A DNA stretch of 20,864 bases from a virus, in the IMG/VR virus record IMGVR_UViG_3300033146_000723, positions 1 through 20,864 of that record. One strand, given 5' to 3'. Numbering within the stretch: the first letter of the stretch is position 1; each line of letters opens with the position of its first letter. Below, piece by piece: positions 29 through 19,882 of this stretch. The translations under genes and the position numbers were made by a program. The notes under the pieces are model-generated. The model ran no database searches. It worked only from the letters and a program-made list of their open reading frames with translations, and was not told the DNA's origin.

Positions 29-1129
29 TTATTGATTAATGTAATCTTTTATTTCATTGAATAATTTATTTATAGCATCATTAAATATATCAATGTTTTC
101 AAATATATTCTGTTCTTGAATTATTAAATTATCGGTTAGTCTAATATTATTTTTGTCTTGTAGTGTATAGTATATAGTATATAATGGGTTATCCATATCT
201 GTATTTCTTGGATATATATTCATATGTAATGTTTTATCTCCAATTTCTGAAACACTAGAAATAGATTCATTCATTGATACATTTTTCGTTATCTTAGTAT
301 TGTATTTTTGTAATAGTTCATTTTTATTTATAAATTTTTGAAATGTTTTAATGTTTTTATATTTTAATCTATCTGCTTTTGGTGGATTTTTATATGTTTT
401 ATTTCTAATTGAATCAATCCATTTGATTGGTTTTATAGATAAAAATACTGCCTGAATCGGTTCACTTGGATGAATTATACCTTCACCGTTTTTATCACAC
501 ACCCCATCATAACCCAGTTTGGTTAATATATGTCTCCATCTATTGGTTATTGATGTATTTTTAAATTCTGGGAAATTGTAATTATCGTATGCTATTGCTC
601 TTGTTATAAACCACAATTGACCAAAATCGGAAGTGTTTCTATTGTAATAATAGTTATCTTCATCATCATCTTCATATTCATAGTCGACATCTGATGCTTC
701 TTCTATTATTGATTTAAATCTATCTTGATTTTGACTACTAACCATTTTTGATAATTTATCAATGTCTCTTTCAAGGTCTTGTTGTCGATAATCATATGTT
801 ATATCTTTAATAACATTACTATCATCGATTAATTGAATCACCTGTACGAACTCTCTATCTCCTCCGAATGGTATTTTCATATCTAATGTTTCGCCATCAA
901 CCAATCCATTTTCCAAACCATATTCTTCCCATACTAATTTTAAGGGATACGTGTATATCCCATTGGGTGTGTTAAAATCAGATTTAGGATTAATTCCTAT
1001 CTTATTAACCCTGGTGAAAGATATATAAATATCATCTCTATCCTTATATTTTTCCAATTCCTGATAAACTGATATTTTATCATTATTGTGTTTTCTTTTT
1101 TCTAACATAAATTGTTTCAAAGTAATCAT
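29..1129 (-). CDS. Putative capsid-packaged protein, family A (ART-like?), 366 aa
   Basis: Family name not recognised. The first ten residues, MITLKQFMLE, match the short leader shared by seven other genes here and resemble T4 internal-protein capsid-targeting peptides that the prohead protease cuts after [LI]-x-E. Residues 30-110 carry the paralogue-defining block IYISFT, GINPKSDFNTPNGIYTYPL and PFGGDR. An acidic low-complexity insert sits at about 147-160. Residues 195-240 hold W-x-x-I-L-x-x-L-G-Y-D-G, then GIIHPSEP and QAVFLS-x-K-P-I-K. This ending recalls the GYDG...VVF..xQIK close of polyvalent phage ADP-ribosyltransferase-like or barnase-like domains, but I cannot place catalytic residues, so function is open. 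The C-terminal ~70 residues resemble the tail of the 13201 protein. The start is supported by AGGAGG just upstream and a TATAAATG box 30 bases away. It is divergent from the terminase gene. Confidence 0.7.
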   Translation of the reverse strand: MITLKQFMLEKRKHNNDKISVYQELEKYKDRDDIYISFTRVNKIGINPKSDFNTPNGIYTYPLKLVWEEYGLENGLVDGETLDMKIPFGGDREFVQVIQLIDDSNVIKDITYDYRQQDLERDIDKLSKMVSSQNQDRFKSIIEEASDVDYEYEDDDEDNYYYNRNTSDFGQLWFITRAIAYDNYNFPEFKNTSITNRWRHILTKLGYDGVCDKNGEGIIHPSEPIQAVFLSIKPIKWIDSIRNKTYKNPPKADRLKYKNIKTFQKFINKNELLQKYNTKITKNVSMNESISSVSEIGDKTLHMNIYPRNTDMDNPLYTIYYTLQDKNNIRLTDNLIIQEQNIFENIDIFNDAINKLFNEIKDYINQ

Positions 1130-1158
1130 AATATAAACCTCCTATATTGTAATATTTT

Positions 1159-1166
1159 CATTTATA
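1159..1166 (-). promoter_or_regulatory. T4-type late promoter box (TATAAATG)
   Basis: Read on the minus strand this is TATAAATG, 30 bases before the ATG at 1129. The spacing matches five other boxes in the window. T4 late promoters need only a TATAAATA element around -10, with no -35. In DNA this AT-rich the box alone is weak evidence; the constant spacing is the support. Confidence 0.5.
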
Positions 1167-1190
1167 TATATTTATTTATTTGATATAAAA

Positions 1191-1198
1191 TATAAATA
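1191..1198 (+). promoter_or_regulatory. T4-type late promoter box (TATAAATA)
   Basis: A perfect TATAAATA lies about 31 bases before the ATG at 1230, so the terminase C-half should be expressed late. A three-codon frame (ATG GTG CTT TGA, 1218-1229) ends directly before the start codon. The Shine-Dalgarno signal is poor. Confidence 0.6.
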
Positions 1199-1229
1199 AA
1201 GATATGTTAATAATATTATGGTGCTTTGA

Positions 1230-1709
1230 ATGTTTAAAAAATTAAAAAATATGTTTATAAATTGGTTGTTGGAGAGAAAAACTATATCTATTGGAGATTT
1301 TCATAATAAGTTCTGTTCTGTAACACATACTAATATTTATGATAATGGGAAATTGAAATTTATAGAGGAGCAACCCATATTTAATAAAAATATATACATT
1401 GAATCAGAGGATAATAAGTATATTAGAGTTAATAAATCATTAAAAACAATAAAATATGGTGTTTGGGGTGTTGAGCTTGAAAATGGTAAAAATATTAAAT
1501 GTGCTGATGAACATATTTTTATGGATAATTCAGGTTCAGAGATATTGTGTAAAAATTTAAAAGTAAATGATACAATATTAAAAACTAAAAATGGTAATTC
1601 AAAGGTTTCTAAATTATCTATTAGTAGTATTCAAGAGCATATGTATGATTTAGAGTTAGCTTATGATAGTTCTCACACTTATTATACTAATGATATTGTT
1701 TCTCATAAT
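1230..1709 (+). other. Atypically split intein, C-terminal fragment (IntC, 160 aa, no endonuclease domain)
   Basis: Block B is seen at about residues 77-98 (GVWGVELENGKNIKCADEHI, with H95 as block-B histidine). Block F and G are at 137-160, ending SHN with H159 and N160, followed by Thr as +1 nucleophile. Block A with the N-terminal Cys or Ser is missing, so the split lies between blocks A and B. IntN is therefore very short, unlike DnaE-type inteins, which split near the endonuclease position. Only about 40 residues separate blocks B and F, so there is no LAGLIDADG domain. TerL inteins with early split sites (AceL-TerL type) are known; this one appears longer because residues about 18-60 precede block B. 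Residues 1-17 look like an added amphipathic helix. Confidence 0.88.
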
Positions 1710-3146
1710 ACAACAACTAGTGCTTCATTTATGTTATTTTATATATTATTTAATAAACAAAAAACAGTAGCTATAGTTGCTAATAAACAGGCTACAGCTA
1801 AAGAAATTTTAGACCGTATAAAATTAATGTATGATTATCTTCCTATGTGGATGAAACCTGGTATAGTTGAATGGAATAAAGCAAGCGTTAAATTTGATAA
1901 TGGTTGTAAAATAATGGCTGCCGCAACTAGCTCGGATTCTATACGTGGACAGTCAATATCATTATTATATTTGGATGAATTTGCATTTATTCAGAAGAAT
2001 TTAATTAACGAGTTTATCGAATCTACTTTTCCAGTTATTTCGTCATCTAAATTAGCTAGAATTATAATTACATCTACACCTAATGGTAAAAATCATTTTT
2101 ATAAATTTTATCAAGATGCTGTACATAAAAAATCATCATTTATACCTTCTAGGATTAGGTGGGATGATGTTCCTGGTAGGGATGATGAATGGAGAGAAGA
2201 ACGTATAAAAGAGCTTGGGTCTATTGAAAAATTTAATCAAGAATATGGAGCTGAGTTCGCTGAGGCTTCTAATATGGCATTTAATGCTGAAACAATTAGA
2301 CATATTGAAAAAATTCAAGTAAAAGACCCATTATATAAGAAAGTTAAGATTGTTACTGGGTTGAGAGTGTTTGAAAGACCTAACAATAGAAGTAAATATT
2401 TGATATCTTGTGATGTTGCTGGAGGTAGAGGTAGAGATTCATCAACTATGATTGTATTCGATATAACTAAAGATAACGTGTATAACATTGTTGCTACTTA
2501 TCAAAATGATGAAATTCAAACTATTGATTATCCTGAGATGATTTATAAAATTGCATTATATTATAATGAGGCATATGTTATAATAGAGAATAACTCCCTT
2601 GGTGACGGTGTAGCGAATGATTTGTGGTATGATTATGAATATACAAATATATATAGCACTGATTTCACAAGAGAGAATAAAACAAAGAAGACTGCTTATC
2701 ACGAAATTGGGATAAAAACTAACAGGAAAAATAAAAGGGCTGGTGTATTATATCTATCATCAATGCTTGATAGGTTTAAAATATATATTCCTGATGTCAG
2801 GGTTATAGATGAATTATATACATTTGTTAAAAATGAAAATGACACTTATTCTGCAAGTCAAAGTAATCACGATGATTTTGTAATGAATCTGGTTTTATTT
2901 GCATATTTAGTCAAAACTAGAGAATCATTTGATTTACTTCGTGCATCATATAAGGATTTTGATAATGGTGATGATGATTTACCATTAGATGGAGTTGCAT
3001 ATATTGAGGGTGGTGTCTTTAGAAGTAATAAACAACAAGCAATTCGAGATTCTGATGATGAGTTGTTGAATATGTTAATGGGTGATGTTAGTACAAATTT
3101 TAATCGTGATAAATATAAGAATCAGATTGAAAATTTTTTTAAATAA
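1230..3146 (+). CDS. Split-intein C-half fused to C-half of terminase large subunit (TerL, T4 gp17-like)
   Basis: Residues 1-160 are the C-terminal piece of an intein and residues 161-638 are the C-extein, the packaging motor-nuclease of a T4-like phage. The extein begins TTTSASF and aligns without gaps to T4 gp17 from the T of the Walker A GKT. G-x-x-x-x-GK and about 165 N-terminal residues are therefore absent and must come from another gene by trans-splicing. Visible terminase motifs are EWNKASVKFDNG (214-225), Walker B LLYLDE with D249/E250, and the coupling motif TSTPNG (281-286). The RNase H-like nuclease acids are D395 (SCDVAGGRGRD), E453 (IIENN) and D548/D549 (HDDFVMN). All key residues of this half are intact, which argues for function rather than decay. 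A late promoter box lies just upstream. The matching N-half with IntN was looked for and is not in this window. Confidence 0.93.
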   Translation: MFKKLKNMFINWLLERKTISIGDFHNKFCSVTHTNIYDNGKLKFIEEQPIFNKNIYIESEDNKYIRVNKSLKTIKYGVWGVELENGKNIKCADEHIFMDNSGSEILCKNLKVNDTILKTKNGNSKVSKLSISSIQEHMYDLELAYDSSHTYYTNDIVSHNTTTSASFMLFYILFNKQKTVAIVANKQATAKEILDRIKLMYDYLPMWMKPGIVEWNKASVKFDNGCKIMAAATSSDSIRGQSISLLYLDEFAFIQKNLINEFIESTFPVISSSKLARIIITSTPNGKNHFYKFYQDAVHKKSSFIPSRIRWDDVPGRDDEWREERIKELGSIEKFNQEYGAEFAEASNMAFNAETIRHIEKIQVKDPLYKKVKIVTGLRVFERPNNRSKYLISCDVAGGRGRDSSTMIVFDITKDNVYNIVATYQNDEIQTIDYPEMIYKIALYYNEAYVIIENNSLGDGVANDLWYDYEYTNIYSTDFTRENKTKKTAYHEIGIKTNRKNKRAGVLYLSSMLDRFKIYIPDVRVIDELYTFVKNENDTYSASQSNHDDFVMNLVLFAYLVKTRESFDLLRASYKDFDNGDDDLPLDGVAYIEGGVFRSNKQQAIRDSDDELLNMLMGDVSTNFNRDKYKNQIENFFK

Positions 3147-3155
3147 AACTTTACA
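3141..3155 (+). repeat. 15-bp direct repeat flanking the first homing endonuclease gene (left copy)
   Basis: AAATAAAACTTTACA occurs here, overlapping the terminase stop codon, and again at 5008-5022 just after the endonuclease gene. In both places an AT-rich promoter-like stretch follows. The pair may mark the edges of the inserted module. Confidence 0.55.
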
Positions 3156-3178
3156 TTCAAATAAATATATGATATTGT
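3150..3178 (+). promoter_or_regulatory. Sigma70-like promoter for the first homing endonuclease gene
   Basis: TTTACA (3150-3155), a 17-base spacer and TATTGT (3173-3178) preceded by TGA give an extended -10. It lies 32 bases before the ATG at 3211, which has AGGGAT as ribosome binding site. The design matches the promoter of the second endonuclease gene at 18086-18114, so both appear to carry host-type promoters of their own. Confidence 0.55.
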
Positions 3179-3210
3179 TATTGTTGTGTTTAATATATTA
3201 GGGATATTAT

Positions 3211-4998
3211 ATGATTTTAAAACAAGATATAATAGATAAATTAAATAAGATTAATTTAGGTAGGCGTAAAAATAAAGATTGGACTGTGGATTTAAATGAC
3301 AATGAATTAGATGAAATTATTAATAGTGTTAAACATTTAGATATATATGTTGATGATTTTAAAGAAATTCGTGATTGTTATATTAATAATATTAATGTTC
3401 AACCTATTTGTCCTGTTTGTGGGGGTAAATGTAAATATGAACGAACTTATAAAAGTAAATATTCTGAATTTTGTTCTGCAAAATGTAGAAATAGTGATAT
3501 AGGAAAAGATATAATTGTAAAAAAAACAAAAAAAACAAATTTAAAGAATTATGGGGTTGAATTTAAATCACAATTGGAGGATAGTAAAGATAATATTAAA
3601 CAATATTGGGATAACTTGTCAGAATCTGATATAATCGCTAAATTGGAAAAAACTAAAAAGACAAATTTAGAGAAATATGGTGTTGAGAATCCATCACAAT
3701 CTGATGAAATAAAAGAAAAAATAAAAAAGACAAATTTGGAGAGATATGGCGTTGAGAACCCATCACAATCAGATGAAATAAAAGAAAAAATAAAAAAGAC
3801 AAATTTGGAGAGATATGGTGTTGAGGTTGTGTTCCAATCAAACGAGATTAAGGAATTGATAAAAAATACAAATTTAGAGAAATATGGTGTTGAGAATCCA
3901 TCGCAATCTGATGAAATAAAAGAAAAATCATCAATTACCAATAGGATGAAATATTATAAAACTTTTAAATTATTATTAAAACAAAAAAAGATAGAACCGT
4001 TATTTGAAATGTCAGAATATTTAACTATTGATTATGATTCAAGCGTGAAAAAATATAAATGTTTAATATGTGACAAAGAATTTGAAAATAATAATTTGAA
4101 CATTCAAAAGATTAGTTGTCCGTATCATAAATTTCGTTCATTAGCTGAGGCTGATATTGTAAGTTGGTTAAACAATGAATCTCCAGGGTTAAAATATGTG
4201 ACGAATAAACAGATGTATAATAATGGCAAAAGATATGAATTGGATATTTATTTACCTGATTTAAATATTGGAATAGAATATCACAGACTCTATTTGCATA
4301 GTGAAGCACATAAAAATAAAAATTATCACAAAGATAAATATGAGTTTTTTAAATCTCTTGGAATTGAAATTGTACAAATATTTGAAAACGAATGGTTAAA
4401 TAGTCAAGAAATAGTTAAATCGATATTGCGAACAAAATTAGGCGTGGTTGAACGAAAAGTGTATGGTAGGTCTTGTACCATTCGTAACATTGAAAACGAT
4501 GAATATAGGCAATTTTGTGAGCTTAATCATATACAAGGGTATTGTAGTGCTAAAGTGAAATTGGGATTGTATGATAAAACTGGTGAATTGGTTCAAATAA
4601 TGAGCTTTTCAAAACCTCGTTTTAATAAAAATTATGATTGGGAAAATATAAGAACTTGCACATTATTAAATACAATTGTTGTTGGTGGATTTTCTAAATT
4701 ATTAAAATATTTCAAAAATAATTATCCAGGGTCTATAATATCATATGTAGATGTTAGATATTTTAATGGAAATGGTTACATCAATAATGGGTTTACTCTT
4801 ATCAATCACATAAAACCTAATTTCTTTTATTTTAAAAATGGGGATATTATATTAGAATCACGTCAAAAATATCAAAAACATAAATTATCAAAAATATTCA
4901 ATAATTATGACTCTACAATCACGGCACACGATAATATGCTTCAAAATAAATTTCTTAGAATATATGATGCTGGTAATTTAATGTTAACTATTAATTAA
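3211..4998 (+). CDS. Vsr-like homing endonuclease 1 (EDxHD-type), 595 aa
   Basis: A free-standing homing endonuclease candidate. In order: a four-Cys zinc knuckle (C67, C70, C88, C92); tandem 23-residue repeats of the form KTNLEKYGVENPSQSDEIKE (about 108-241), probably DNA-contacting; a second C-x2-C...C-x2-H knuckle (284-306); a Vsr/PD-(D/E)xK-like nuclease domain (about 310-410) with YELDIYLPDLNIGIEY, then YHKDKYEFF and QIFENEW; and a conserved C-terminal domain (415-590) with NHIQG, SYVDVRYFNGNGY and RIYDAGN, which I cannot name with certainty. In the motif that reads EYHGLYWHSE in the 18137 paralogue, this copy has R359 for Gly and L362 for Trp, which may weaken activity. It sits directly after the terminase C-half, consistent with fractured-gene modules where split inteins travel with such enzymes. 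Its 3' part is nearly identical in DNA to the second copy. Confidence 0.85.
   Translation: MILKQDIIDKLNKINLGRRKNKDWTVDLNDNELDEIINSVKHLDIYVDDFKEIRDCYINNINVQPICPVCGGKCKYERTYKSKYSEFCSAKCRNSDIGKDIIVKKTKKTNLKNYGVEFKSQLEDSKDNIKQYWDNLSESDIIAKLEKTKKTNLEKYGVENPSQSDEIKEKIKKTNLERYGVENPSQSDEIKEKIKKTNLERYGVEVVFQSNEIKELIKNTNLEKYGVENPSQSDEIKEKSSITNRMKYYKTFKLLLKQKKIEPLFEMSEYLTIDYDSSVKKYKCLICDKEFENNNLNIQKISCPYHKFRSLAEADIVSWLNNESPGLKYVTNKQMYNNGKRYELDIYLPDLNIGIEYHRLYLHSEAHKNKNYHKDKYEFFKSLGIEIVQIFENEWLNSQEIVKSILRTKLGVVERKVYGRSCTIRNIENDEYRQFCELNHIQGYCSAKVKLGLYDKTGELVQIMSFSKPRFNKNYDWENIRTCTLLNTIVVGGFSKLLKYFKNNYPGSIISYVDVRYFNGNGYINNGFTLINHIKPNFFYFKNGDIILESRQKYQKHKLSKIFNNYDSTITAHDNMLQNKFLRIYDAGNLMLTIN
3658..3933 (+). 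repeat. Four tandem 69-bp coding repeats (23-aa units)
   Basis: Four in-frame units (3658, 3727, 3796, 3865) encode KTNLE[KR]YGVE... and a weaker copy lies at about 3532. Units 1 and 2 are almost identical in DNA, and unit 3 diverges in the middle (VVFQSNE). They code for the probable DNA-binding repeats of the endonuclease and are not an intergenic array. Confidence 0.85.
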
Positions 4999-6256: not shown

Positions 6257-6310
6257 AATCTTGTAAAATGATAAATATATTTATAATAATAAAATATAGG
6301 ATATCATATG
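6257..6310 (+). repeat. Duplicated leader, copy 1 (repeated at 8633-8686)
   Basis: About 54 bases up to the start codon of the 6308 gene are repeated almost exactly before the 8684 gene. They include the late promoter box and ribosome binding site. Identity continues into both coding regions, at an offset of 2376 bases. Confidence 0.9.
6270..6277 (+). promoter_or_regulatory. Late promoter box (GATAAATA)
   Basis: GATAAATA ends about 30 bases before the ATG at 6308. It is a one-base variant of the T4 late box and is also present before 8684 and 18022 (minus). A TATAAT at 6282-6287 is an alternative host-type element, but it has no -35 at a good distance. Confidence 0.5.
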
Positions 6311-8629
6311 TCTAACAAAAAAGCAATAGATGAATTATTAAAACAATCAAATGAAACTATTCATAAAATAACTGTTGAAAATATAAAAAAACAAACTGCT
6401 TTTTTGGAGAGTTTTGTTAAAAATTCACACAATATAGATGTAAAAATCCACAAAATGAGAAAAGATGAATATTCTAAATTAATGAATTTAGAATATGATT
6501 TTATTAATAATAAAAAAAAGATAGCGTATGAGAACTATAAAGAAGAAATAGAGGCTCTTAGTTTACAAAAAGAACAAAATAAAAAACAATTAGAAGAGCA
6601 TAAAAAACATTTATATGAAATGTATAAAGCTCAAGGTCATAGTGATGAATATATTGCTGATAAAATAAAAAAGTCAGTTGCTGACAGTGAAAAATATCAT
6701 AAAGAAGAAATAGATAAATTACAAAAAAATATTGATAAATATAAAGCAAAATATAGAAAAGAACGTGAAGTCTTAAAGAAATTTGAAAAAAACACATCTG
6801 CATTGACTAGAGCTATGAATATGGTTGGTGGGTCTGTTGACGGTTTCAATAAAAATAATACAATATTATCTAATAACATTAAAAATATTAATAATAGCAC
6901 AAATAAGTTTAAAACAATATTATTGGATTTTGAAAATGCATTTGATAGTCAGTTAAAAAAATCATCCCCGATGTTAGCTTATTTTAAAAACTTATTATTT
7001 ACTAAAAAAAATAAAGATGAAAAAAACATAGTAGATATTTTAAAAAAAGGGACAAATATTAATAGTAAAAAAAGCAAGGTATCTAGTCCTAAAAATGGTC
7101 AAGAACAAGTTAAAGGTAGATATTCAGATAAAGAAATTGCATACATAAAAAAGAAATATAGAAATGCTAAATCAATACCAAAAATAGCATCAGGATTGAA
7201 TAGACCAGAGAAATCTGTTAAAATAAAAATTAAAAAAATGAAAGAAAAAGGGGAGTTGAGGGATGTTGAACGTGTCAATCCATTTTCAATGTTTGAAGAT
7301 GGGTTAAAAAAAATAGGAGGGATATTTAAAACAGAGATATCATCATTAGGAACTAAATTAAATAAGTTGAAAAGTATATCTACATTTAAGATGGTTGGTA
7401 ATTTTAAAATGCTTGGTTATTTTATTGCATTGGTTTCTGCTGTTAAGTTAGCAAGTAAATTACCTGAATTATTTCAAAAACAATCTGAACGGAAATTTGG
7501 TAAATTGAAAGATGGTGAAGTTTTATCTGGTACTAGTAAACCTAATTCTAACAATATGAATGGTGTTCCATTTGTTAGAATTGGAAATTCTTTGGATAAC
7601 CGTGAGCAAATGTATTCCAGGGCAATTAAAAAAGCAAAACTTATTGAAAATCCAGAGGAGCAAACCAAAAGATTAAAAGAAATAAATAATCTGTATAAAT
7701 CAATATTGAAAAATAGGGATAAATTTAAAGAGACCAGTAGTAGTCCTTTCAGTTTTTTTGGAGATAGTTTATCTGATATAGAAGAAAAAAAGCTAGCTCT
7801 TCTTTATAAATTAGAAAAATTTGCAGGTAATTCTATTGAGGATGTTAATATAAATTCTCCGATATATAAAGATAGATTTGGGTTGAATTTTGAAAAAGTA
7901 TCAACTAAACGTGGTGGGCTGGCTTCTAAGGAATATAAATTAAGTGGTGATATTTTATCTAATAAAAAAGATAGTAGAATTTTAAAGTTTATAGGTGAAC
8001 ACAATCATAAAATTTTTACACCATATGAACAGGCTGATATATCCCCAAATGCAGAATATTTAAACTCTGATGTTTCTATGCAAAATAATAAGGAATTATT
8101 ACAATCTTTTAAATTTATTAAAAAACAAGATAGATATGCTGAATATAATTACAATGCAACTGATGAAGCTCAACGAGATAAAGCATTATCATTATTAAAT
8201 GATGGTTATGTTATTCGTCCTCACGTTCCTGATAACGAAAAATTAGATGATATAACTAAAATACATTTAGCATATATTAAAAGACGGGATTCAAAAACAC
8301 CACAAAAGCAAGTTTTACCAGTTTTTAAACTAAAATTAAAAGATGCGTTTAAACAACATATGCGTGTTGGTTTCAATAAAGATTCTAATGGTATGGTTCG
8401 ACAAAAAAAGAATGAAAGTGTGAAAAATATAAGTAATGTTGGGAAAAAATTAAGTTCGGATAATAATGTTAATAAAAGTATAAATAATCGAACTACACAA
8501 AATATATTAGAAATTGAAACTAACAATCAACAAATTAATAATAATATGTTTGTTAGTGGTGATACAAATGTCCATTTAGTACGTATGATAAACGGTTTAA
8601 CTGATAAATTAGAATGTGAAATGGTCTAA
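6308..8629 (+). CDS. Putative virion protein with coiled coil, HTH-like segment and degenerate M15-like domain, 773 aa
   Basis: Residues 1-165 are lysine/glutamate-rich coiled coil. Residues 270-316 (YSDKEIAYIKKKY...IASGLNRPEKSVKIKI) look like a Myb/SANT-type helix-turn-helix. A hydrophobic stretch lies at about 360-385. The C-terminal region (about 540-695) aligns with the peptidase domain of the 8684 protein, but the zinc motif is gone. HxxGxxxD has become NAEYLNSD (about 581-588) and H-L-D has become H684-M-R, so this copy should be catalytically dead. Residues 1-180 and 201-330 are nearly identical to 8684, while the rest has diverged. Size, coiled coil and a wall-lytic end fit a tail or ejected virion protein, possibly tape-measure-like. 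That is inference. Confidence 0.65.
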   Translation: MSNKKAIDELLKQSNETIHKITVENIKKQTAFLESFVKNSHNIDVKIHKMRKDEYSKLMNLEYDFINNKKKIAYENYKEEIEALSLQKEQNKKQLEEHKKHLYEMYKAQGHSDEYIADKIKKSVADSEKYHKEEIDKLQKNIDKYKAKYRKEREVLKKFEKNTSALTRAMNMVGGSVDGFNKNNTILSNNIKNINNSTNKFKTILLDFENAFDSQLKKSSPMLAYFKNLLFTKKNKDEKNIVDILKKGTNINSKKSKVSSPKNGQEQVKGRYSDKEIAYIKKKYRNAKSIPKIASGLNRPEKSVKIKIKKMKEKGELRDVERVNPFSMFEDGLKKIGGIFKTEISSLGTKLNKLKSISTFKMVGNFKMLGYFIALVSAVKLASKLPELFQKQSERKFGKLKDGEVLSGTSKPNSNNMNGVPFVRIGNSLDNREQMYSRAIKKAKLIENPEEQTKRLKEINNLYKSILKNRDKFKETSSSPFSFFGDSLSDIEEKKLALLYKLEKFAGNSIEDVNINSPIYKDRFGLNFEKVSTKRGGLASKEYKLSGDILSNKKDSRILKFIGEHNHKIFTPYEQADISPNAEYLNSDVSMQNNKELLQSFKFIKKQDRYAEYNYNATDEAQRDKALSLLNDGYVIRPHVPDNEKLDDITKIHLAYIKRRDSKTPQKQVLPVFKLKLKDAFKQHMRVGFNKDSNGMVRQKKNESVKNISNVGKKLSSDNNVNKSINNRTTQNILEIETNNQQINNNMFVSGDTNVHLVRMINGLTDKLECEMV

Positions 8630-8632
8630 GTT

Positions 8633-8686
8633 AATCTTGTAAAATGATAAATATATTTATAATAATAAAATATAGGATATCATATG
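8633..8686 (+). repeat. Duplicated leader, copy 2 (repeat of 6257-6310)
   Basis: It begins 4 bases after the stop codon of the upstream paralogue and runs into the next start codon. This shows that the tandem duplication included the promoter. Confidence 0.9.
8646..8653 (+). promoter_or_regulatory. Late promoter box (GATAAATA)
   Basis: Same element and spacing (about 30 bases) as at 6270-6277, before the ATG at 8684. Confidence 0.5.
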
Positions 8687-11005
8687 TCTAACAAAAAAGC
8701 AATAGATGAATTATTAAAACAATCAAATGAAACTATTCACAAAATAACTGTTGAAAATATAAAAAAACAAACCGCTTTTTTGGAGAATTTTGTTAAAAAT
8801 TCACACAATATAGATGTAAAAATTCATAAAATGAGAAAAGATGAATATTCTAAATTAATAAATTTAGAATATGATTTTATTAATAATAAAAAAAAGATAG
8901 CATATGAAAAATATAAAGATGAGATAGAGACTCTTAGTTTACAAAAAGAACAAAATAAAAAACAATTAGAAGAGCATAAAAAACATTTATACGATATGTA
9001 TAAAGCTCAAGGTCGTAGTGATGAATATATTGCTGATAAAATAAAAAAGTCAGTTGCTGATAGTGAGAAATATTATAAAGAAGAAATAGATAAATTACAA
9101 AAAAATATTGACAAATATAAAATAAAATATAGAAAAGAACGTGAAGTCTTAAAGAAATTTGAAAAAAACACATCCGCATTAACTAGAGCTATGAATATGG
9201 TTGGTGGGTCTGTTGATAGGATGGGTAATAATAGTAAAATTATCAATACTAGTATCGATAAAATCGGAACAGGAACTAGCAAGTTTAAAACAATATTAGG
9301 GGATTTTGAAAATGCATTTGATAGTCAGTTAAAAAAATCATCCCCAATGTTAGCTTATTTTAAAAAATTATTATTCAATAAAGAAAATAAAAAAGAAAAC
9401 GATATAAATAAAATATTAAAAAAAGGGACAAATATTGATAGTAAAAAAAGTAAAGTATCTAGTCCTAAAAATGGTCAAGAACAAGTTAAAGGTAGATATT
9501 CAGATAAAGAAATTGCGTACATAAAAAAGAAATATAAAGATGTTAAATCAATACCAAAAATAGCATCAGGATTGAATAGACCAGAGAAATCCGTTAAAAT
9601 AAAAATTAAAAACATGAAAGAAAAAGGGGAGTTAAGGGATGTTGAACGTGTCAATCCATTTTCAATGTTTAAGACTGGTTTTAAAAAATTGGGTGGTGTA
9701 TTTAAAACAGGGTTTTTATCATTAGGAACTAAATTAAATAAGTTGAAAAGTATTGAGATGCTTGGATTGCTACCACTTTTAAAAATGGTTGGAATAGTTG
9801 GCACTGCCATTGCTTCTTGGGGTGGTTATAAATATTTAAAGAAAAAATTTGTTGATGATTATAAAGCTCCAACAGGAGCCAGTATTACAGGTGTTGAGAG
9901 TGATAATTTTAAAGAAACATATTCTAAAGTTGAAAAATATGAACCAAATGAAAAACATAGAACAAAGGTATTACGAAAACTTGTAACCCTTAAAAGTAAA
10001 TTTGCAAAGAATAAGCATAATATAGCATACGAAAAAGATGGTATTGGTGGTGGTAATCAATTACATATAGACCAATTAGAGGCAGAACAACAAAAAATTA
10101 TTGATGAAATATCTAAAATTAATAATGAATATACTAAAGATAATTTAAAGAATATAAACAATCCAGAATTTAAAAATAAACATAAAGGCATACGTTTTAA
10201 AAAAAGAACTCTCAAAAATGGTAACATTAGGTCTAGGGCTTTTAAGTTGAATCAAGATGTTTTAAAGGATAATAATAGTCAAAATGTATTAAAAATGTTA
10301 GGTAATCGTGGATATACTATTACAGAAACAACCAAGGGGTCTCACGAAAAATCAAAATCAGGAATTGACCACATTAATGGATATAAGGCAGATGTTAGAA
10401 CTTATGATAAAGATGCATCAGAATTATTAAAAATGGTTGGGTATATTAATAAGCAAGATATTAGGGTTGCTTATGAATATAAAGCTGATGACCCCAATCA
10501 AAGAGTGAAAGCATTAGCATTGTTGAATGCAGGGTATAAAATACATCCACATATATCCAATGGTAAAAAGGATACAGCCACTACTAAACATTTAAATAAG
10601 ATTAGAGGTATAGACAAACTAAATGATAAAAAATTAGTATTAAATACCACAACTGTTAAAGGTGATTGGAAAAAGTGGGGTTCACATTTAGATATTAATT
10701 TTGGTAAACATTCTAATGGTGATTTAAATAGGCATTTTGTAGATAATAGACAAAAACAGATTAAGCAACAATCTCAACCAAGTGCGGTAGGGAAAAAAAT
10801 CCAAGAAAATGAATCTGTACGAGATAGTATTACAAATGATATAAAGAATAAAGTTAATCTTCACAAGCAAAACAGTACACAAAATATTAATAATACATCT
10901 ATTTCTAAAGGTGGTTCAAATGTGGCTCTCACTAATGCTGTTAGTGGATTGGTTGATGTATTAGAACGAAAATTATTACCATCAGGTGAAATACAATTAG
11001 TTTAA
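8684..11005 (+). CDS. Putative virion protein with coiled coil, HTH-like segment and intact M15-like peptidase domain, 773 aa
   Basis: The architecture matches the upstream paralogue: coiled coil (1-165), HTH-like segment (270-316), and a hydrophobic helix at about 357-380 (MLGLLPLLKMVGIVGTAIAS). A peptidase-like domain spans about 515-685 and a Gln/Asn-rich tail follows. The zinc-ligand pattern is complete: H563-x-x-G566-x-x-x-D570 (HINGYKAD) and H668-L-D670 (GSHLDI). These fit the Hedgehog/DD-peptidase (M15-like) fold, predicting cleavage of peptide bonds in peptidoglycan. As part of a long coiled-coil virion protein it would most likely help genome entry rather than lysis. Residues 1-180 and 201-330 are almost identical to the 6308 protein. 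Downstream a membrane protein gene starts after 12 bases with a strong AAGGAGAG site, so the two are probably co-transcribed. Confidence 0.7.
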   Translation: MSNKKAIDELLKQSNETIHKITVENIKKQTAFLENFVKNSHNIDVKIHKMRKDEYSKLINLEYDFINNKKKIAYEKYKDEIETLSLQKEQNKKQLEEHKKHLYDMYKAQGRSDEYIADKIKKSVADSEKYYKEEIDKLQKNIDKYKIKYRKEREVLKKFEKNTSALTRAMNMVGGSVDRMGNNSKIINTSIDKIGTGTSKFKTILGDFENAFDSQLKKSSPMLAYFKKLLFNKENKKENDINKILKKGTNIDSKKSKVSSPKNGQEQVKGRYSDKEIAYIKKKYKDVKSIPKIASGLNRPEKSVKIKIKNMKEKGELRDVERVNPFSMFKTGFKKLGGVFKTGFLSLGTKLNKLKSIEMLGLLPLLKMVGIVGTAIASWGGYKYLKKKFVDDYKAPTGASITGVESDNFKETYSKVEKYEPNEKHRTKVLRKLVTLKSKFAKNKHNIAYEKDGIGGGNQLHIDQLEAEQQKIIDEISKINNEYTKDNLKNINNPEFKNKHKGIRFKKRTLKNGNIRSRAFKLNQDVLKDNNSQNVLKMLGNRGYTITETTKGSHEKSKSGIDHINGYKADVRTYDKDASELLKMVGYINKQDIRVAYEYKADDPNQRVKALALLNAGYKIHPHISNGKKDTATTKHLNKIRGIDKLNDKKLVLNTTTVKGDWKKWGSHLDINFGKHSNGDLNRHFVDNRQKQIKQQSQPSAVGKKIQENESVRDSITNDIKNKVNLHKQNSTQNINNTSISKGGSNVALTNAVSGLVDVLERKLLPSGEIQLV

Positions 11006-12572: not shown

Positions 12573-13190
12573 ATGAAATTTACAAGTGGTCAATTATTGT
12601 TAAAAGAGGATTATAAAGGTAGGGATTTATTAATTGTTAATATTCAACCATCAATGGAAAGTAGAATATCCTTTAATTTGATAGATTTTGGAAAGTGGTT
12701 ACAAAATAATGGTGATGATTTTTATGATATTTTTTTCTTATATAATGGTCAAGTTGGTGAATCAAAACATAATACCGATGTTCAAATATCAACTTGGTAT
12801 AATGACAGACTTGGAATTATAGATGGTTTTACATCTATTGCACAAGATATTAAAGAATTGCCTAGTTATTTTGATAAAATATTAGATACTGATTATTCTA
12901 ATGATGATATTATTCGTTTGGGAAAATATATGACATCTAGAAATTATGATAAGATTGATGATATGTCTAAAGAAGAGATAATAAATTTAAATATTAATGA
13001 GGGGTTTAAAGAGGAACTTGTAAATGGTAAACACGTTATGAATATACCTTATGATTTTTTAAAATTAATTAAATCATTAAAAAACCCTGTAGTTATTGGT
13101 GGATTGGGTCACGAATCTATGAGAATGTTAGATATTATATTTGCAATTGTTAATAAAAATATGGATAAAAATAAAGATTGGTGTTTTTAA
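12573..13190 (+). CDS. Paralogue of the 11970 protein with both presumed catalytic residues changed, 205 aa
   Basis: The fold features are the same: GRDLLIVNIQPSMES near the N-terminus, NPVVIGGLGHESMRM near the C-terminus, and an aromatic final residue (WCF versus WVY). The Asp of VDIQ is Asn (N23) and the Cys of NECLAE is Ser (S182), so isochorismatase-type chemistry should be lost. It may be a binding protein, a decoy or a decaying copy. The leader MKFTSGQLLLKE again ends in L-x-K-E, like the other presumed packaged proteins. AGGGGG 6 bases before the ATG is a strong ribosome binding site. Its stop lies 10 bases before the next gene. Confidence 0.55.
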   Translation: MKFTSGQLLLKEDYKGRDLLIVNIQPSMESRISFNLIDFGKWLQNNGDDFYDIFFLYNGQVGESKHNTDVQISTWYNDRLGIIDGFTSIAQDIKELPSYFDKILDTDYSNDDIIRLGKYMTSRNYDKIDDMSKEEIINLNINEGFKEELVNGKHVMNIPYDFLKLIKSLKNPVVIGGLGHESMRMLDIIFAIVNKNMDKNKDWCF

Positions 13191-13200
13191 GGGGTGTTTA

Positions 13201-14217
13201 ATGATTAATTTTAAAGATTTTTTATTAGAGCGTAGAACTAATATTGAGGATAATCCTAAAATTTCTGCATACGAGATATTGAAAAAATATAAAAATGATG
13301 ATGATATATATATATCTTTCACTATAATTAATAAAGTAGGAATTAATCCTAAATCTGATTTTAATACCCCAAATGGAATATATTGTTATCCTATAAAAGA
13401 AATATGGAAAAAATACAATATAGATATACAACAAAGTGTAGGTGAAGTTGTCCCATTTGGTGGGGATAGACCTTATATTCAAGTTTTACGATTGGTTAAT
13501 GATGATGGTTTTATTAATGATATGTATTACGATTATAAAATTGATAATTATGATAGAGACATATCCAAATTGAAAGATTTAGTTGATGATAATGTTGATG
13601 AATTAAATGATATTATTGAATCATCGAATACAAAATCTAGATTAACAAATAAACCAATAGGTAGATTTTGGTTTATTACAAGAGAAATAGCTATAAATAA
13701 AAATAATTCATTCAATATGTTTGGTAAGGGTGAATTAACTATGCGTTGGAATAATATATTAAGACAACTTGGATATACTGGTTTTGCTGATAAGTCAGGT
13801 AAAGGAATAATACATCCATCTGAACCTTTACAGGCTGTATTTTTATCCATTAAACCTGTTAAATGGATTGAAATGGTTAATAATAAAGATTATGATAAAT
13901 CCAAAGTGGATACTACTAATAAAGATATATGGTTGAATATTACAAACAGCATAAGTGATGACCCTGAAACATTAAGTTTTGTTTCTAATGATGGGTTTGA
14001 ATATAATTATAAATATAAGACACAATCAGGTGACTTTAAAATAACTTTAACATTGGAAAGTAATTTAGGGGATACTCCTAGATATACATTAACATCTTGG
14101 GATAATGATGATTTATTCGATGAACGAGTTTTAAATAAAGATGTTTTTGAAGATATAGATAAACTTAAGAAAATGATTATATCTATGATGAAAGATATGA
14201 GTAAATATAATGATTAA
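13201..14217 (+). CDS. Putative capsid-packaged protein, family A, 338 aa
   Basis: The start is the ATG at 13201, with AAGGGG 6 bases away; it gives the leader MINFKDFLLE, and a longer upstream frame would run through the preceding gene. Residues 34-95 hold the family block IYISFT, GINPKSDFNTPNGIYCYP and VPFGGDR. Residues about 178-222 hold WNNILRQLGYTGFADKSG, GIIHPSEP and QAVFLS-x-K-P. As in the 29-1129 paralogue, the ending resembles ADP-ribosyltransferase-like polyvalent phage domains, but no catalytic set can be assigned. The C-terminal ~110 residues are beta-rich and end in a helix, matching the tail of the 29-1129 protein. A 104-base patch (13744-13847) is nearly identical to the 14899 gene, pointing to gene conversion. 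The next gene overlaps it by 8 bases. Confidence 0.68.
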   Translation: MINFKDFLLERRTNIEDNPKISAYEILKKYKNDDDIYISFTIINKVGINPKSDFNTPNGIYCYPIKEIWKKYNIDIQQSVGEVVPFGGDRPYIQVLRLVNDDGFINDMYYDYKIDNYDRDISKLKDLVDDNVDELNDIIESSNTKSRLTNKPIGRFWFITREIAINKNNSFNMFGKGELTMRWNNILRQLGYTGFADKSGKGIIHPSEPLQAVFLSIKPVKWIEMVNNKDYDKSKVDTTNKDIWLNITNSISDDPETLSFVSNDGFEYNYKYKTQSGDFKITLTLESNLGDTPRYTLTSWDNDDLFDERVLNKDVFEDIDKLKKMIISMMKDMSKYND

Positions 14218-14893
14218 TTTTAAAAAATATATAATAGAATCTAATACAATTCATAATGATAACCCTAAAATTTCTGCATACGATATATTGAATAAATATA
14301 AAGATATGGATAATATTTATATTTCATTCTCATTTGTAAAAGAAATAAGTATTGACTCTATAGATGATGATGCAATTCCATATGGTGTGGTGTGCTATCC
14401 CTTAAAAGAAATATGGAAACAAAATAAAACATATCAACACAAAAATATAGATTTTTTGTCTTTATATAATAAAGATATGCCTTATATTCAGGTAATACGA
14501 TTAGTTAATGATGATGGATGTATTAATGATATGTATAATGATTACACTAATGTCAATTTTGATAATGATATAGATAAAATAAAATCTTTAACTGGTGTTG
14601 ATTATAAATATATTAATAAAATTATAATTAATTCCCAGACAAATTCTAAAATAAAATCTCCTATTGGTATATTTTTACATATTACTAATAGCATTGCTAA
14701 AAGTAATATTGAATATTTTAATATTTTTGGCAACGGAACTATAGTTGAACGTTGGGCTAATATACTAAAACAGCTTGGATATAATGGTTTTGCTGATAAA
14801 TCAGGAAGATACATATTTAATAAATATAAGAGGTTTCAATCGTTGTTTTTAACAGAACAAAATATTAAATTGATTGATATAATTAATAGGTGA
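14210..14893 (+). CDS. Degenerate short member of family A, 227 aa
   Basis: The leader MINFKKYIIE and NPKISAYDILNKYKDMDNIYISF match the neighbouring family members, and the order of the blocks is kept. The hallmark motifs are eroded, though. GINPKSDFNTPNGIYTYPL has become SIDSIDDDAIPYGVVCYPL, and GIIHPSEPLQAVFLS has become YIFNKYKRFQSLFLT. The C-terminal extension of the other members is absent. The reading frame is clean and the leader is retained, so it may still be made and packaged with an altered role. It overlaps the preceding gene by 8 bases and its TGA lies 5 bases before the next ATG, consistent with translational coupling. Confidence 0.62.
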   Translation: MINFKKYIIESNTIHNDNPKISAYDILNKYKDMDNIYISFSFVKEISIDSIDDDAIPYGVVCYPLKEIWKQNKTYQHKNIDFLSLYNKDMPYIQVIRLVNDDGCINDMYNDYTNVNFDNDIDKIKSLTGVDYKYINKIIINSQTNSKIKSPIGIFLHITNSIAKSNIEYFNIFGNGTIVERWANILKQLGYNGFADKSGRYIFNKYKRFQSLFLTEQNIKLIDIINR

Positions 14894-14898
14894 ATATT

Positions 14899-16278
14899 AT
14901 GATTAGTTTTAAAGAATTTTTATCAGAGGCTAGGAGAAATCCTAATGATAATCCTAGAGTTTCAGTATACGATAAATTAAAACAATATAAGGATAGGGAT
15001 GATATATATATTACTTTTACTGATATAAATAAAGTAGGCATTAAACCAATGTCTGATTTTAACACTCCTAATGGAATATATACTTATCCATTAAAAGAAA
15101 TTTGGGAAGAATATAACATTGATAATAATACTGATATTGGTAGCGAGGTTCCATTTGCTGGGGATAGGAAATTTATTCAAATTATACAATTGATTAATGA
15201 TGATGGATTTATTAATGATATGTATGTAGATTATACCGAGATTGATTATAACAAAGATATTGAGAATATTGAGAACATTATTAAATCTAAATCACAATAT
15301 AAAGATAAGGATAATGATTTTTTAGATGAAATTGTAGGGAATGCGTTAAATGAATCTATTAATGACTCACCAATAGGGAGATTGTGGTATATTACGTGGA
15401 AAATATCTAAAAATGTTAATATGTTTGAATTTTTAGGTAGCCATAGTAATACACAACGTTGGAATAATATATTAAGACAACTTGGATATACTGGTTTTGC
15501 TGATAAGTCAGGTAAAGGAATAATACATTCATCCGAGCCTTTACAGGCTGTGTTTTTATCTACCCAGCCTATTAAATTAATTGATACTATTGATAACATT
15601 ATTACTAATTATAACTCTAAAATAAAGGATGCTATTCAAACAGATAATTATGATTTGTTTAATAGATATATTAAAATATCCCCTGAATCTTCAAATTTAG
15701 AATTATTAAATTATGCAATTTATAAGAAAAAAGAAAAATTCGTTAAAATAATATTGGATTCTGGGGCTATTCCTGATAGTAATAGTTTATATTATGCGAT
15801 TTATATTAAAAATTCAAATATTTTAGATGATGTCATTTCTATATGCAAGAGCTCGAATATTAAATTAAATGCGAAAGTGTTAAGTTTGGTTATTAGTATG
15901 GATGACGAAAAATTATTAGATAAAATAATTCAATTGAATGTTACATTTAATGATTATACTTTATTAGAAGCTGTTAACGTTGGAAATATAAATATATTTG
16001 AAAAACTTATGCGTTTAAATGTCAAAATTCCTGATGATTTATTATCTGCAATTATACACAATAATAATCTTGATATTTTTAATAAAGCTGTTGAATTAGG
16101 GATTAAACCTGATGTGAAATCTTTAAATACTGCAATTGTGGTTCAAAATATTGATATGATTAAAACGGTTATAAAATTAGGTGGTGAATATACAGATGCA
16201 ACGTTGGATTTAGTTGAAGAGTTTAATAATAAGGAAATTAAAAATATTATTATGAAATATATTGGAGGTAAAAGTTGA
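14899..16278 (+). CDS. Family A domain fused to ankyrin-like repeats, putative packaged effector, 459 aa
   Basis: The leader MISFKEFLSE is followed by Ala, the most T4-like cleavage context in the set. The family A domain (about 20-230) has GIKPMSDFNTPNGIYTYPL, VPFAGDR, WNNILRQLGYTGFADKSG and GIIHSSEPLQAVFLS. Residues about 240-455 then form some six helical repeats of about 33 residues. Examples are NSLYYAIYIKNSNILDDVIS, YTLLEAVNVGNINIFEKLM and KSLNTAIVVQNIDMIKTVIK, each in the pattern L-x-x-A-[IV]-x-x-x-[ND]-x-x-[IL]-[FI] typical of ankyrin-like repeats. Such repeats bind proteins, so the fusion suggests delivery of the N-terminal domain to a host or phage partner. GGTGA lies 5 bases before the ATG at 14899, which I prefer to a GTG at 14890. 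TGATG joins it to the next gene. Confidence 0.68.
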   Translation: MISFKEFLSEARRNPNDNPRVSVYDKLKQYKDRDDIYITFTDINKVGIKPMSDFNTPNGIYTYPLKEIWEEYNIDNNTDIGSEVPFAGDRKFIQIIQLINDDGFINDMYVDYTEIDYNKDIENIENIIKSKSQYKDKDNDFLDEIVGNALNESINDSPIGRLWYITWKISKNVNMFEFLGSHSNTQRWNNILRQLGYTGFADKSGKGIIHSSEPLQAVFLSTQPIKLIDTIDNIITNYNSKIKDAIQTDNYDLFNRYIKISPESSNLELLNYAIYKKKEKFVKIILDSGAIPDSNSLYYAIYIKNSNILDDVISICKSSNIKLNAKVLSLVISMDDEKLLDKIIQLNVTFNDYTLLEAVNVGNINIFEKLMRLNVKIPDDLLSAIIHNNNLDIFNKAVELGIKPDVKSLNTAIVVQNIDMIKTVIKLGGEYTDATLDLVEEFNNKEIKNIIMKYIGGKS

Positions 16279-18136: not shown

Positions 18137-19882
18137 ATGTCAAACAAGTCAAAACAATCAATAATAGATATATTTAATAATATTAGAGGAGCATCTGTAA
18201 AATGTTGGATGAAATATTTCACGGATGTTGAATTGAAACATATTCAGGAGATGCTTACACATTTAAATATTAATAATAACTCGTTTAGAGAAATTAGGAC
18301 TTGTTATATTAATAATATATATAGTCAACCAGTTTGCTCGGTGTGTGGTAATCCTTGTGTTTTTGATAATAATAATAACAAATATAAAAATTTTTGTTCA
18401 ATTGATTGTAAAAAAACAAAACAGGGTAAAAAGTTAATAAATGATAAAGTAAAGAAAACTAGCATTGAAAAATATGGGGTTGAACATTATTCTAAGACTA
18501 TCGAACATAATGATAAAGTAAAGAAAACTAGCATTGAAAAATATGGTGTTGAACATTACTCTAAGACTATTGAATATAATGAGAAAGTAAAAAAAACTAG
18601 CATTGAAAAATATGGTGTTGAAAATGCATCACAATCAACTGATATTAAAAATAAGAGGGTTAATAGTAATATTGAAAAATATGGTGTTGATAACGTGTTT
18701 CAAAATGATGATATTAAGACAAATATAAAAAAAAATAATTTAAAAAAATATGGGGTTGAATATTATTCACAAACTGATGAATATAGAATTAAAACAAAAA
18801 AATTAAGAAGGTCTCAGAATTATGATATTTTTGTTTTGTTATTGCAACAAAAACAAATAACACAATTGTTTAATAAAGATGATTACATTGAATTTGATTA
18901 TAATGATATTCTGAGGTTTAAATGTGAAAAATGTGGGATGGAGTTCACTTTTAAAAATGTTAAAAATCAAGACATTGAAATTATTAGTATATATTGCCCG
19001 AATCACAAATATAAATCACAGGCTGAGTTTGATATTTATAATTGGTTGATTAGTGAAAATAAAAATTTAAACATAATATTAAATAAAAGGTTTTATTATA
19101 ATAATAATCATTTTTATGAAATTGATTTATATTTACCTGAATTAAATATAGGAATTGAATATCACGGATTATATTGGCATTCAGAGGCTCGAAAAAAGAA
19201 AAACTATCATAAAAATAAATATGATTTTTTTAAAAATATGGATGTTCAACTTATTCAAATATTTGAAAATGAATGGGTTCATAAAAAAGATATAGTTAAA
19301 TCGATATTACGAACAAAATTAGGCGTGGTTGAACGAAAAGTGTATGGTAGGTCTTGTACCATTCGTAACATTAAAAACGATGAATATAAGCAATTTTGTG
19401 AGCTTAATCATATACAAGGGTATTGTAATGCTAAAGTGAAATTGGGATTGTATGATAAAACTGGTGAATTGGTTCAAATTATGTCATTTTCAAAACCTCG
19501 TTTTAATAAAAATTATGATTGGGAAAATATAAGAACTTGCACTAAAATCAATACAGTGGTTGTTGGTGGGTTTTCAAAATTATTAAAATATTTCAAAAAT
19601 AATTATCCAGGGTCTATAATATCGTACGTAGATTTGAGATATTTTAATGGGAATGGTTATATCAATAATGGGTTTGAAAAGATTGGAGAATCACCCCCTA
19701 ATTTCTTTTATTTTAAAAATGATAGTAGTTTCATACTTGAATCACGACAAAAATATCAAAAACATAAATTGATTAACATTTTTGACAACTTCGATTCAAC
19801 AAAAACATCTCATGAAAATATGTTAATGAATAATTATCTTAGAATATATGATGCTGGTAATTTAGTTTTAATATCAGTCTAA
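18137..19882 (+). CDS. Vsr-like homing endonuclease 2 (EDxHD-type), 581 aa
   Basis: The domain order is that of the 3211 paralogue. A zinc knuckle (C67, C70, C87, C91) is followed by about five 23-residue repeats of KKTSIEKYGVEHYSKTIE type (about 106-220) and a second knuckle (C263, C266, C287, H290). The Vsr-like nuclease domain (about 295-395) has YEIDLYLPELNIGIEYHGLY with WHSE, then YHKNKYDFF and QIFENEW. The conserved C-terminal domain (400-575) follows. Here the nuclease signature EYHGLYWHSE is intact, so this copy is the better candidate for an active enzyme. The expected role is cutting an allele that lacks the gene and so spreading by repair. It sits between convergent late genes and no interrupted gene is seen around it, so it looks free-standing. 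AGAGGT precedes the ATG. Confidence 0.85.
   Translation: MSNKSKQSIIDIFNNIRGASVKCWMKYFTDVELKHIQEMLTHLNINNNSFREIRTCYINNIYSQPVCSVCGNPCVFDNNNNKYKNFCSIDCKKTKQGKKLINDKVKKTSIEKYGVEHYSKTIEHNDKVKKTSIEKYGVEHYSKTIEYNEKVKKTSIEKYGVENASQSTDIKNKRVNSNIEKYGVDNVFQNDDIKTNIKKNNLKKYGVEYYSQTDEYRIKTKKLRRSQNYDIFVLLLQQKQITQLFNKDDYIEFDYNDILRFKCEKCGMEFTFKNVKNQDIEIISIYCPNHKYKSQAEFDIYNWLISENKNLNIILNKRFYYNNNHFYEIDLYLPELNIGIEYHGLYWHSEARKKKNYHKNKYDFFKNMDVQLIQIFENEWVHKKDIVKSILRTKLGVVERKVYGRSCTIRNIKNDEYKQFCELNHIQGYCNAKVKLGLYDKTGELVQIMSFSKPRFNKNYDWENIRTCTKINTVVVGGFSKLLKYFKNNYPGSIISYVDLRYFNGNGYINNGFEKIGESPPNFFYFKNDSSFILESRQKYQKHKLINIFDNFDSTKTSHENMLMNNYLRIYDAGNLVLISV
18452..18658 (+). repeat. Tandem 69-bp coding repeats (23-aa units) in homing endonuclease 2
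   Basis: Units begin at about 18452, 18521 and 18590, and more diverged copies run to about 18790. The first two are almost identical in DNA. They match the repeats of the first endonuclease in length and in the core EKYGVE, but differ in the flanking residues. Confidence 0.8.

What the first reader, a model, noticed from the sequence alone, without database searches (positions are those of the whole stretch)
1230..1711. Terminase split by an early-split mini-intein exactly at Walker A GK|T
The ORF opens with intein blocks B, F and G and a terminal SHN, and continues TTTSASF, which aligns gap-free to T4 gp17 from the Thr of GKT. Block A and the P-loop glycines are missing, so the gene is fractured inside its ATP-binding loop. 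The motor should work only after trans-splicing. The split point between blocks A and B implies a very short IntN, as in AceL-TerL-type inteins, but here IntC is unusually long (160 aa).
Basis: partly seen in the sequence, partly recalled or inferred. Interest (0 to 1): 0.88.

Follow-up and report, generated by a model that had tools for sequence, protein, structure and literature searches.

The report
Split-intein half of phage packaging motor
This viral gene makes only the back part of the phage's DNA-packaging motor, headed by half of a self-splicing protein element (an intein), so the motor's ATP-binding loop can be completed only by joining to a front part encoded elsewhere; this is a new variant of a known and, in environmental phages, common arrangement.

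Summary
ORF 1230-3146 is a 160-residue C-terminal intein half (IntC, 1230-1709, ending SHN) joined to a T4-type large-terminase C-part starting at the Thr after Walker A GK. The window is the whole 20,864-bp record and contains no N-half. Relatives at 68-71% identity have intact terL; one at 46% (L004) has the same split, with its N-half plus IntN divergently encoded. Inteins at this GK|T site occur in hundreds of phages. In IMG/VR split forms outnumber contiguous ones (34 vs 15 non-redundant). Delftia phage PhiW-14 and Vibrio phage vB_VmeM-32 (77 kb apart, opposite strands) are complete-genome precedents.

One point of the interpretation needs correction. The split is not at the AceL-TerL position (S2). 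It lies one element earlier (S1), inside a helical-hairpin insertion in the beta2-alpha1 loop. Contiguous relatives L094 and L150 carry the whole hairpin; L004, L091 and L110 have the first helix on IntN and the second on IntC. This explains the long IntC and predicts the missing IntN at about 33-45 residues after [P/S/A]RQxGK. Trans-splicing is inferred, not shown. The missing N-half was sought in IMG/VR and not found.

The parts
1230..3146 (+). terL C-part gene: IntC (160 aa) + TerL C-extein (478 aa)
   Evidence: Pfam PF03237/PF17289; alignment to relatives
1230..1709 (+). IntC, the C-terminal fragment of a class-1-like split intein (blocks B, F, G; ends SHN)
   Evidence: homologous IntCs in L004, L091, L110, L127
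1230..1274 (+). N-terminal helix of IntC (MFKKLKNMFINWLLE), second arm of a helical-hairpin insertion
   Evidence: helix 2-14 in the model (pLDDT about 69); aligns to helix 51-64 of contiguous intein L094
1278..1313 (+). intein helix alpha1 (KTISIGDFHNKF) retained in IntC, so the split is at S1
   Evidence: helix 21-27 in the model; aligns with TIGELHSRF of the contiguous Kuttervirus intein and with L094/L150
1461..1523 (+). intein block B (VWGVELENGKNIKCADEHIFM; His95 invariant among relatives)
1641..1709 (+). intein blocks F and G (MYDLELAYDSSHTYYTNDIVSHN)
   Evidence: TIGR01443 over cut-off
1710..3143 (+). TerL C-extein from +1 Thr: Walker B (LLYLDEFAF), ITSTPN motif, nuclease acidic residues (CDVAGG, IIENN, NHDDF)
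   Evidence: 68-71% identical to intact terL of L002/L003
1191..1198 (+). TATAAATA, T4-late-promoter-like box 31 bp before the ATG (weak: 23 copies in window, 13.8 expected)
3211..4998 (+). free-standing homing endonuclease gene just downstream; possibly linked to the intein's mobility (unproven)
   Evidence: PHROG 3339 homing endonuclease E=2e-122

Best explanation
The ORF is the C-terminal partner of a split intein inserted between Lys and Thr of the Walker A motif of a T4-type large terminase. A separate N-partner (TerL residues 1 to ...RQxGK, then an IntN of about 33-45 residues starting with Cys) is predicted elsewhere in the genome, beyond the 20.9-kb record. The two fragments are predicted to meet through a helix at the end of IntN packing on the helix at the start of IntC, plus completion of the intein fold by IntN strands beta1-beta2. 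They would then splice by the ordinary route: Cys1 thioester, transfer to Thr+1, Asn160 cyclisation with the penultimate His, and acyl shift. This yields a seamless GK-TTT P-loop and an active packaging ATPase. Shown here: IntC anatomy and predicted fold, extein identity, absence of an N-half in the record, matched N/C pairs in relatives, and the hairpin in contiguous relatives. Inferred: the existence of the N-partner in this virus, helix docking, splicing, and dependence of packaging on it.
For: IntC blocks and fold. TerL extein and motifs. Same split in L004 with an N-half on the opposite strand of the same 134-kb contig. S1 pairs: L091, where the two ORFs lie 41 nt apart (IntN CCIKTTNIKLEK...IMNKIKKFILFIMDRRIYYDTFGKV), and L110 (IntN CLYKTTIINTAVKPKGFKKLLLKLFFRKQYDLIF...). 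Contiguous L094 and L150 (203 aa) carry both helices; IntN+IntC lengths sum to 190-200 aa, against 203 contiguous. The L094 model has helices 16-34 and 51-64 joined by a low-confidence loop that contains the split point. The S1 family including the window is one supported group (99/89) in the 66-row intein tree. Intact terL in the nearest relatives shows the gene is normally whole. Complete-genome precedents for the split: PhiW-14 adjacent; vB_VmeM-32, N-half at 79,947-80,624(-) and C-half at 1,102-3,216(+).
Against: The N-partner of this virus was not found: no match in the record, and none in IMG/VR with two N-half profiles or two IntN DNA patterns. Those patterns cover only the commonest codons. 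Splicing was not tested. Block B has CADEH where many inteins have TxxH. The window's intein is on a long branch in the tree (1.76). Helix amphipathicity is not consistently above shuffles, so the docking role of the hairpin rests on homology and prediction only. The ATG has only a weak ribosome-binding site.
Confidence: 0.88

Rival explanations
1. Dead remnant: a contiguous intein-bearing terL was broken, the front half was lost, and the ORF is a decaying pseudogene while another intact terL (or a superinfecting phage) serves packaging.
For: No N-half in the record. The neighbouring upstream ORF (29-1129, minus strand) is unrelated, a member of a four-copy family. Long branch of the intein.
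Against: 638 codons without a stop. Intein catalytic residues and all terminase motifs are intact. The start codon sits at the homologous split position of L004/L091/L110, directly after a stop, with the conserved extra helix. The extein is 68-71% identical to intact TerLs over 456-481 residues. No second TerL in the record.
Confidence: 0.05
2. Assembly or frameshift artefact: the gene is contiguous in the real virus, and the contig has been misjoined just upstream of 1230.
For: Single metagenomic contig without read data. The upstream 100 bp is AT-rich intergenic sequence next to a divergent ORF of a repeated family, a place where misjoins can occur.
Against: A misjoin would have to fall by chance exactly at the split position shared by L004, L091, L110 and L127 and leave a proper Met start after a stop. 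No N-terminal fragment in any frame upstream. Split forms are the majority at this site.
Confidence: 0.05
3. The halves work without splicing, as a two-chain TerL joined non-covalently, with the intein halves serving only as a dimerisation clamp.
For: Genes-in-pieces without splicing are known for phage ribonucleotide reductase (cited in PMC10448857).
Against: The break is inside the P-loop between the catalytic Lys and Thr, where a covalent loop is expected to be essential (established knowledge). Splice-site residues C1 (in relatives), H159, N160 and T+1 are conserved in every S1 member seen.
Confidence: 0.03

Closest known systems
Contiguous Walker-A TerL inteins (TerL1-a of mycobacteriophages, PMC5050341; Ackermannviridae/Kuttervirus gp17 inteins)
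   Same: Same protein and same insertion point between Lys and Thr of the P-loop (PMC5050341)
   Different: Those are one chain; here the intein is split, in a T4-type TerL with an extra helical hairpin
Fractured genes with split inteins and free-standing homing endonucleases (Dassa et al. 2009; not readable here, known from citations and memory)
   Same: Conserved phage enzyme gene broken by a split intein; homing endonuclease genes sit between halves in many relatives (L005, L040; gaps of 0.9-1.3 kb in 22 of 41 split loci)
   Different: In the window the endonuclease is downstream of the C-half and the N-half is not adjacent
AceL-TerL / GOS-TerL atypical split inteins (S2)
   Same: Terminase host, short IntN, long IntC (PMC11766414, PMC13014065)
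   Different: Split after helix alpha1 there; before alpha1 here. L005, VmeM-32 and PhiW-14 are the S2-type cases at this GK|T site
VidaL and PolB16 OarG inteins (S1)
   Same: Split between beta2 and alpha1 (PMC13014065); VidaL structure 6vgv is the top fold match
   Different: IntN 15-16 aa there; in relatives of the window 33-44 aa with an added helix, and a matching helix at the IntC start
Vibrio phage vB_VmeM-32 VmeM32_00001 + VmeM32_00107
   Same: TerL split at the same GK|T site, halves far apart and on opposite strands in a complete genome
   Different: S2 split without the hairpin; also carries a second, contiguous intein at Walker B

Membership tests
Intein (HINT splicing domain) | Blocks B, F, G with block B His, penultimate His and terminal Asn | tested here: met
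   fold
Intein (HINT splicing domain) | +1 Cys/Ser/Thr on the C-extein | tested here: met
   Thr161
Intein (HINT splicing domain) | Block A with Cys1/Ser1 | tested here: inconclusive
   absent from this record; present as Cys1 in the separate N-halves of L004, L091, L110
Intein (HINT splicing domain) | Catalyses splicing | not testable with these tools
   needs expression
Split intein / fractured gene | Two separate ORFs each carrying one extein and one intein part | tested here: inconclusive
   C-half shown; N-half of this virus not in the record; pairs shown in relatives
Split intein / fractured gene | Free-standing homing endonuclease between the halves | tested here: not met
   HEG at 3211-4998 is downstream of the C-half; 29-1129(-) upstream is not an endonuclease by Pfam, NCBIfam or PHROG. 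Not universal in the group: L091 and PhiW-14 have none between the halves
AceL-TerL type (S2 atypical split) | Split after helix alpha1 | tested here: not met
   alpha1 lies in IntC
VidaL type (S1 atypical split) | Split between beta2 and alpha1 | tested here: met
VidaL type (S1 atypical split) | IntN of about 15-16 residues | tested here: not met
   IntN of the three S1 relatives with a known N-half is 33, 42 and 44 residues; own IntN unknown
T4-type large terminase (gp17) | ATPase and RNaseH-like nuclease domains with their motifs | tested here: met
   PF03237 (from Walker A on) and PF17289; motifs in the sequence

The most novel reading that the evidence does not exclude
This is a distinct clade of TerL split inteins whose halves find each other through a dedicated helical-hairpin module, one helix per half, at an S1 split. 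In some members (L004, probably this virus) the halves sit in separately controlled, divergent or distant transcription units, so assembly of the packaging motor would be an AND-gate. The contiguous members L094/L150 could be re-fused split inteins.
Probability: 0.35. Interest if true: 0.65.

Novelty: new variant of a known kind. Interest (0 to 1): 0.5.

Why it matters
It shows that an essential phage motor is commonly encoded in two pieces that must be spliced through the ATP-binding loop. It also places the split inside a definable helical insertion that exists both whole (contiguous) and broken (split) in close relatives. That series lets the origin, and possible reversal, of intein splitting be studied directly, and gives new short-IntN split-intein pairs with built-in association helices that can be tested at once. 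It warns annotators that N-halves are missed: PhiW-14's has no annotated gene and VmeM-32's is called hypothetical.

Tried and rejected
Looked for the N-half in the record by tblastn, profile and family search: none. Looked for it in IMG/VR with N-half alignments and with two RQxGK-C DNA patterns: found intact terLs and other phages' N-halves, not this one. Genome-contig scan for close relatives: no relative, so no host is named. Considered 'AceL-TerL type': rejected because alpha1 is in IntC. Tested helix amphipathicity as support for docking: inconsistent, not used. Considered independent splits versus re-fusion in the S1 clade: the split forms as one clade are not rejected (p-AU 0.52), so unresolved. 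TATAAATA as a late promoter: only modest enrichment, kept as weak. Three literature look-ups found no paper on split TerL inteins with this hairpin, but Dassa 2009 and Bachmann 2015 are not held, so priority cannot be judged fully.

Full report
What is there. The window is the whole of a 20,864-bp linear viral record, 25.6% G+C. ORF 1230-3146 begins with ATG directly after an in-frame TGA and codes for 638 residues. Residues 161-638 are the T4-type large terminase from the Thr of Walker A onwards (PF03237 from profile position 11, PF17289; PHROG 2, E=1e-48). The Walker B, ITSTPN and nuclease acidic motifs are present (sequence). Residues 1-160 are an intein C-part: NCBIfam intein_Cterm over its cut-off, Pfam Intein_splicing under its cut-off at E=4.7e-5, PDB profile matches to gp41-1, VidaL and Cat inteins. 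A predicted fold (mean pLDDT 83.8) has all its top 50 PDB matches among inteins and HINT relatives, best 6vgv VidaL.

No N-half here. tblastn with two intact N-halves, a profile and PF03237 find no front half or second TerL in the record. The record is a fragment, so this says nothing about the whole genome. The divergent ORF directly upstream (29-1129, minus strand) belongs to a family with three further copies in the window, unnamed by Pfam, NCBIfam and PHROGs.

Relatives. The nearest TerLs are intact: L002 71%, L003 68%, L047/L048 67-71%. L004, a 134-kb contig, is 46% identical over residues 1-567 and has the same split. Its IntC ORF starts at 2471 (+), and its N-half, ending ...RLIAKWPRQVGK|CVVGSTKINIRRESKNYFKKNILKLIRKIDSTF, lies on the opposite strand at 1843-2370, about 100 bp away.

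How common. A tblastn search with the IntC finds 306 phage records with an intein like this, mostly terminase-annotated, many of them Ackermannviridae; the ones read out are contiguous at GK|T (region loci L025, L037). Among the matches 96 are TerL-like. Sorted and thinned at 90% identity these give 34 split, co-directional loci, 15 contiguous, 6 with no N-half in the locus held, and 8 undetermined. Gaps between halves fall in two classes: close to zero, or about 0.9-1.3 kb, the size of one endonuclease gene as seen in L005 and L040. The pattern requires particular residues, so the ratio is for that subset. In complete genomes, Delftia phage PhiW-14 has its N-half in an unannotated ORF just before the C-half. 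Vibrio phage vB_VmeM-32 has the C-half at 1,102-3,216 (+) and the N-half at 79,947-80,624 (-), annotated hypothetical. A 306-kb record has halves about 15 kb apart.

Where the split is. Literature distinguishes S1, between strand beta2 and helix alpha1 (VidaL, PolB16; IntN 15-16 aa), from S2, after alpha1 (AceL-TerL, GOS-TerL) (PMC13014065; PMC11766414). In the window TISIGDFHNKF aligns with the alpha1 segment TIGELHSRF of the contiguous Kuttervirus intein, so the split is S1. Before it IntC has an extra segment MFKKLKNMFINWLLER, predicted helical. L004 (MFKWIKHILERWIYDY), L091 (MNLSKIKQKIVDWCLGK), L110 (MQNILTRLKQHLINWLL) and L127 (MRIIKNIFNLIEDWCW) have the same. The IntNs of L004, L091 and L110 end in a segment like FKKxILKLIxRKxYD. 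L094 and L150 are contiguous inteins at the same site. They carry both segments in one chain, in the beta2-alpha1 loop, with a linker between. The L094 model has helices 16-34 and 51-64 and a low-confidence loop between. IntN+IntC lengths (190, 196, 200) approach the contiguous 203. The split is therefore inside a helical-hairpin insertion, which accounts for the 'unusually long' IntC. The five S1 split and two contiguous hairpin inteins form one supported group (99/89) in a 66-row tree, weaker in a reduced tree (93/89). Whether L094/L150 are ancestors-like or re-fused cannot be told (p-AU 0.52 for the split forms as one clade).

How it most likely works. The expected N-partner carries TerL up to [P/S/A]RQxGK and an IntN with Cys1. 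The two chains would associate through the hairpin helices and by completing the intein fold, then splice by the ordinary Cys1/Thr+1 route and close the P-loop. Association through the helices is inference: they are homologous to a hairpin in contiguous forms, but sequence amphipathicity does not stand out consistently from shuffles. Splicing is inferred from intact catalytic residues across the clade.

Verdict. The finding is real and mostly read correctly. It is a new variant of a known kind: a split intein in a P-loop TerL site that is already known for contiguous inteins (PMC5050341), with an S1 split in a hairpin and halves not adjacent. It is not an AceL-TerL-type split. The most useful additions are the matched N/C pairs, the contiguous forms with the hairpin, and the isolate vB_VmeM-32, where trans-splicing between distant genes could be tested directly.

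Noticed in passing
KU160494.1 (L026 1102-3213; L031 1480-2157): Vibrio phage vB_VmeM-32 TerL is split at GK|T with halves 77 kb apart on opposite strands; the C-half also holds a second, contiguous intein at Walker B (DE|CVSGDT...SHN|CAF).
   Followed up: partly
NC_013697.1 (L038 1877-2347): Delftia phage PhiW-14: the TerL N-half with IntN is an unannotated ORF between the small terminase and the annotated TerL.
   Followed up: partly
L036 1955-5369 (Campylobacter phage IBB_35): TerL interrupted by what look like three inteins, at least one split with two endonuclease-like ORFs between its halves; relative CP20 (L035) has only the first.
   Followed up: no
L094 3769-4377(-), L150 3986-4594: Contiguous inteins carrying the hairpin that is broken in the split forms; possible re-fused split inteins.
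   Followed up: partly
L016 2408-4558: A TerL split by an intein at another site (...QEYE|CVFGETLI... / ...VSHN|CEFMGSSG), with an S2-like split.
   Followed up: no
L190 (418-kb record): TerL N-half reads through three in-frame TAG codons, suggesting TAG recoding in that phage.
   Followed up: no
window 29-1129(-), 13141-14217, 14210-14893, 14890-16278: Four paralogues (35-56% identical) of an unnamed family with almost no match in phage records (two uncultured phages).
   Followed up: partly
window 6308-8629 and 8684-11005: Two tandem 773-residue ORFs, 53% identical, alike at the N-terminus and diverging at the C-terminus.
   Followed up: no
window 3211-4998 and 18137-19882: Two homing-endonuclease-like genes, 58% identical to each other, with further copies in L002/L049.
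   Followed up: partly
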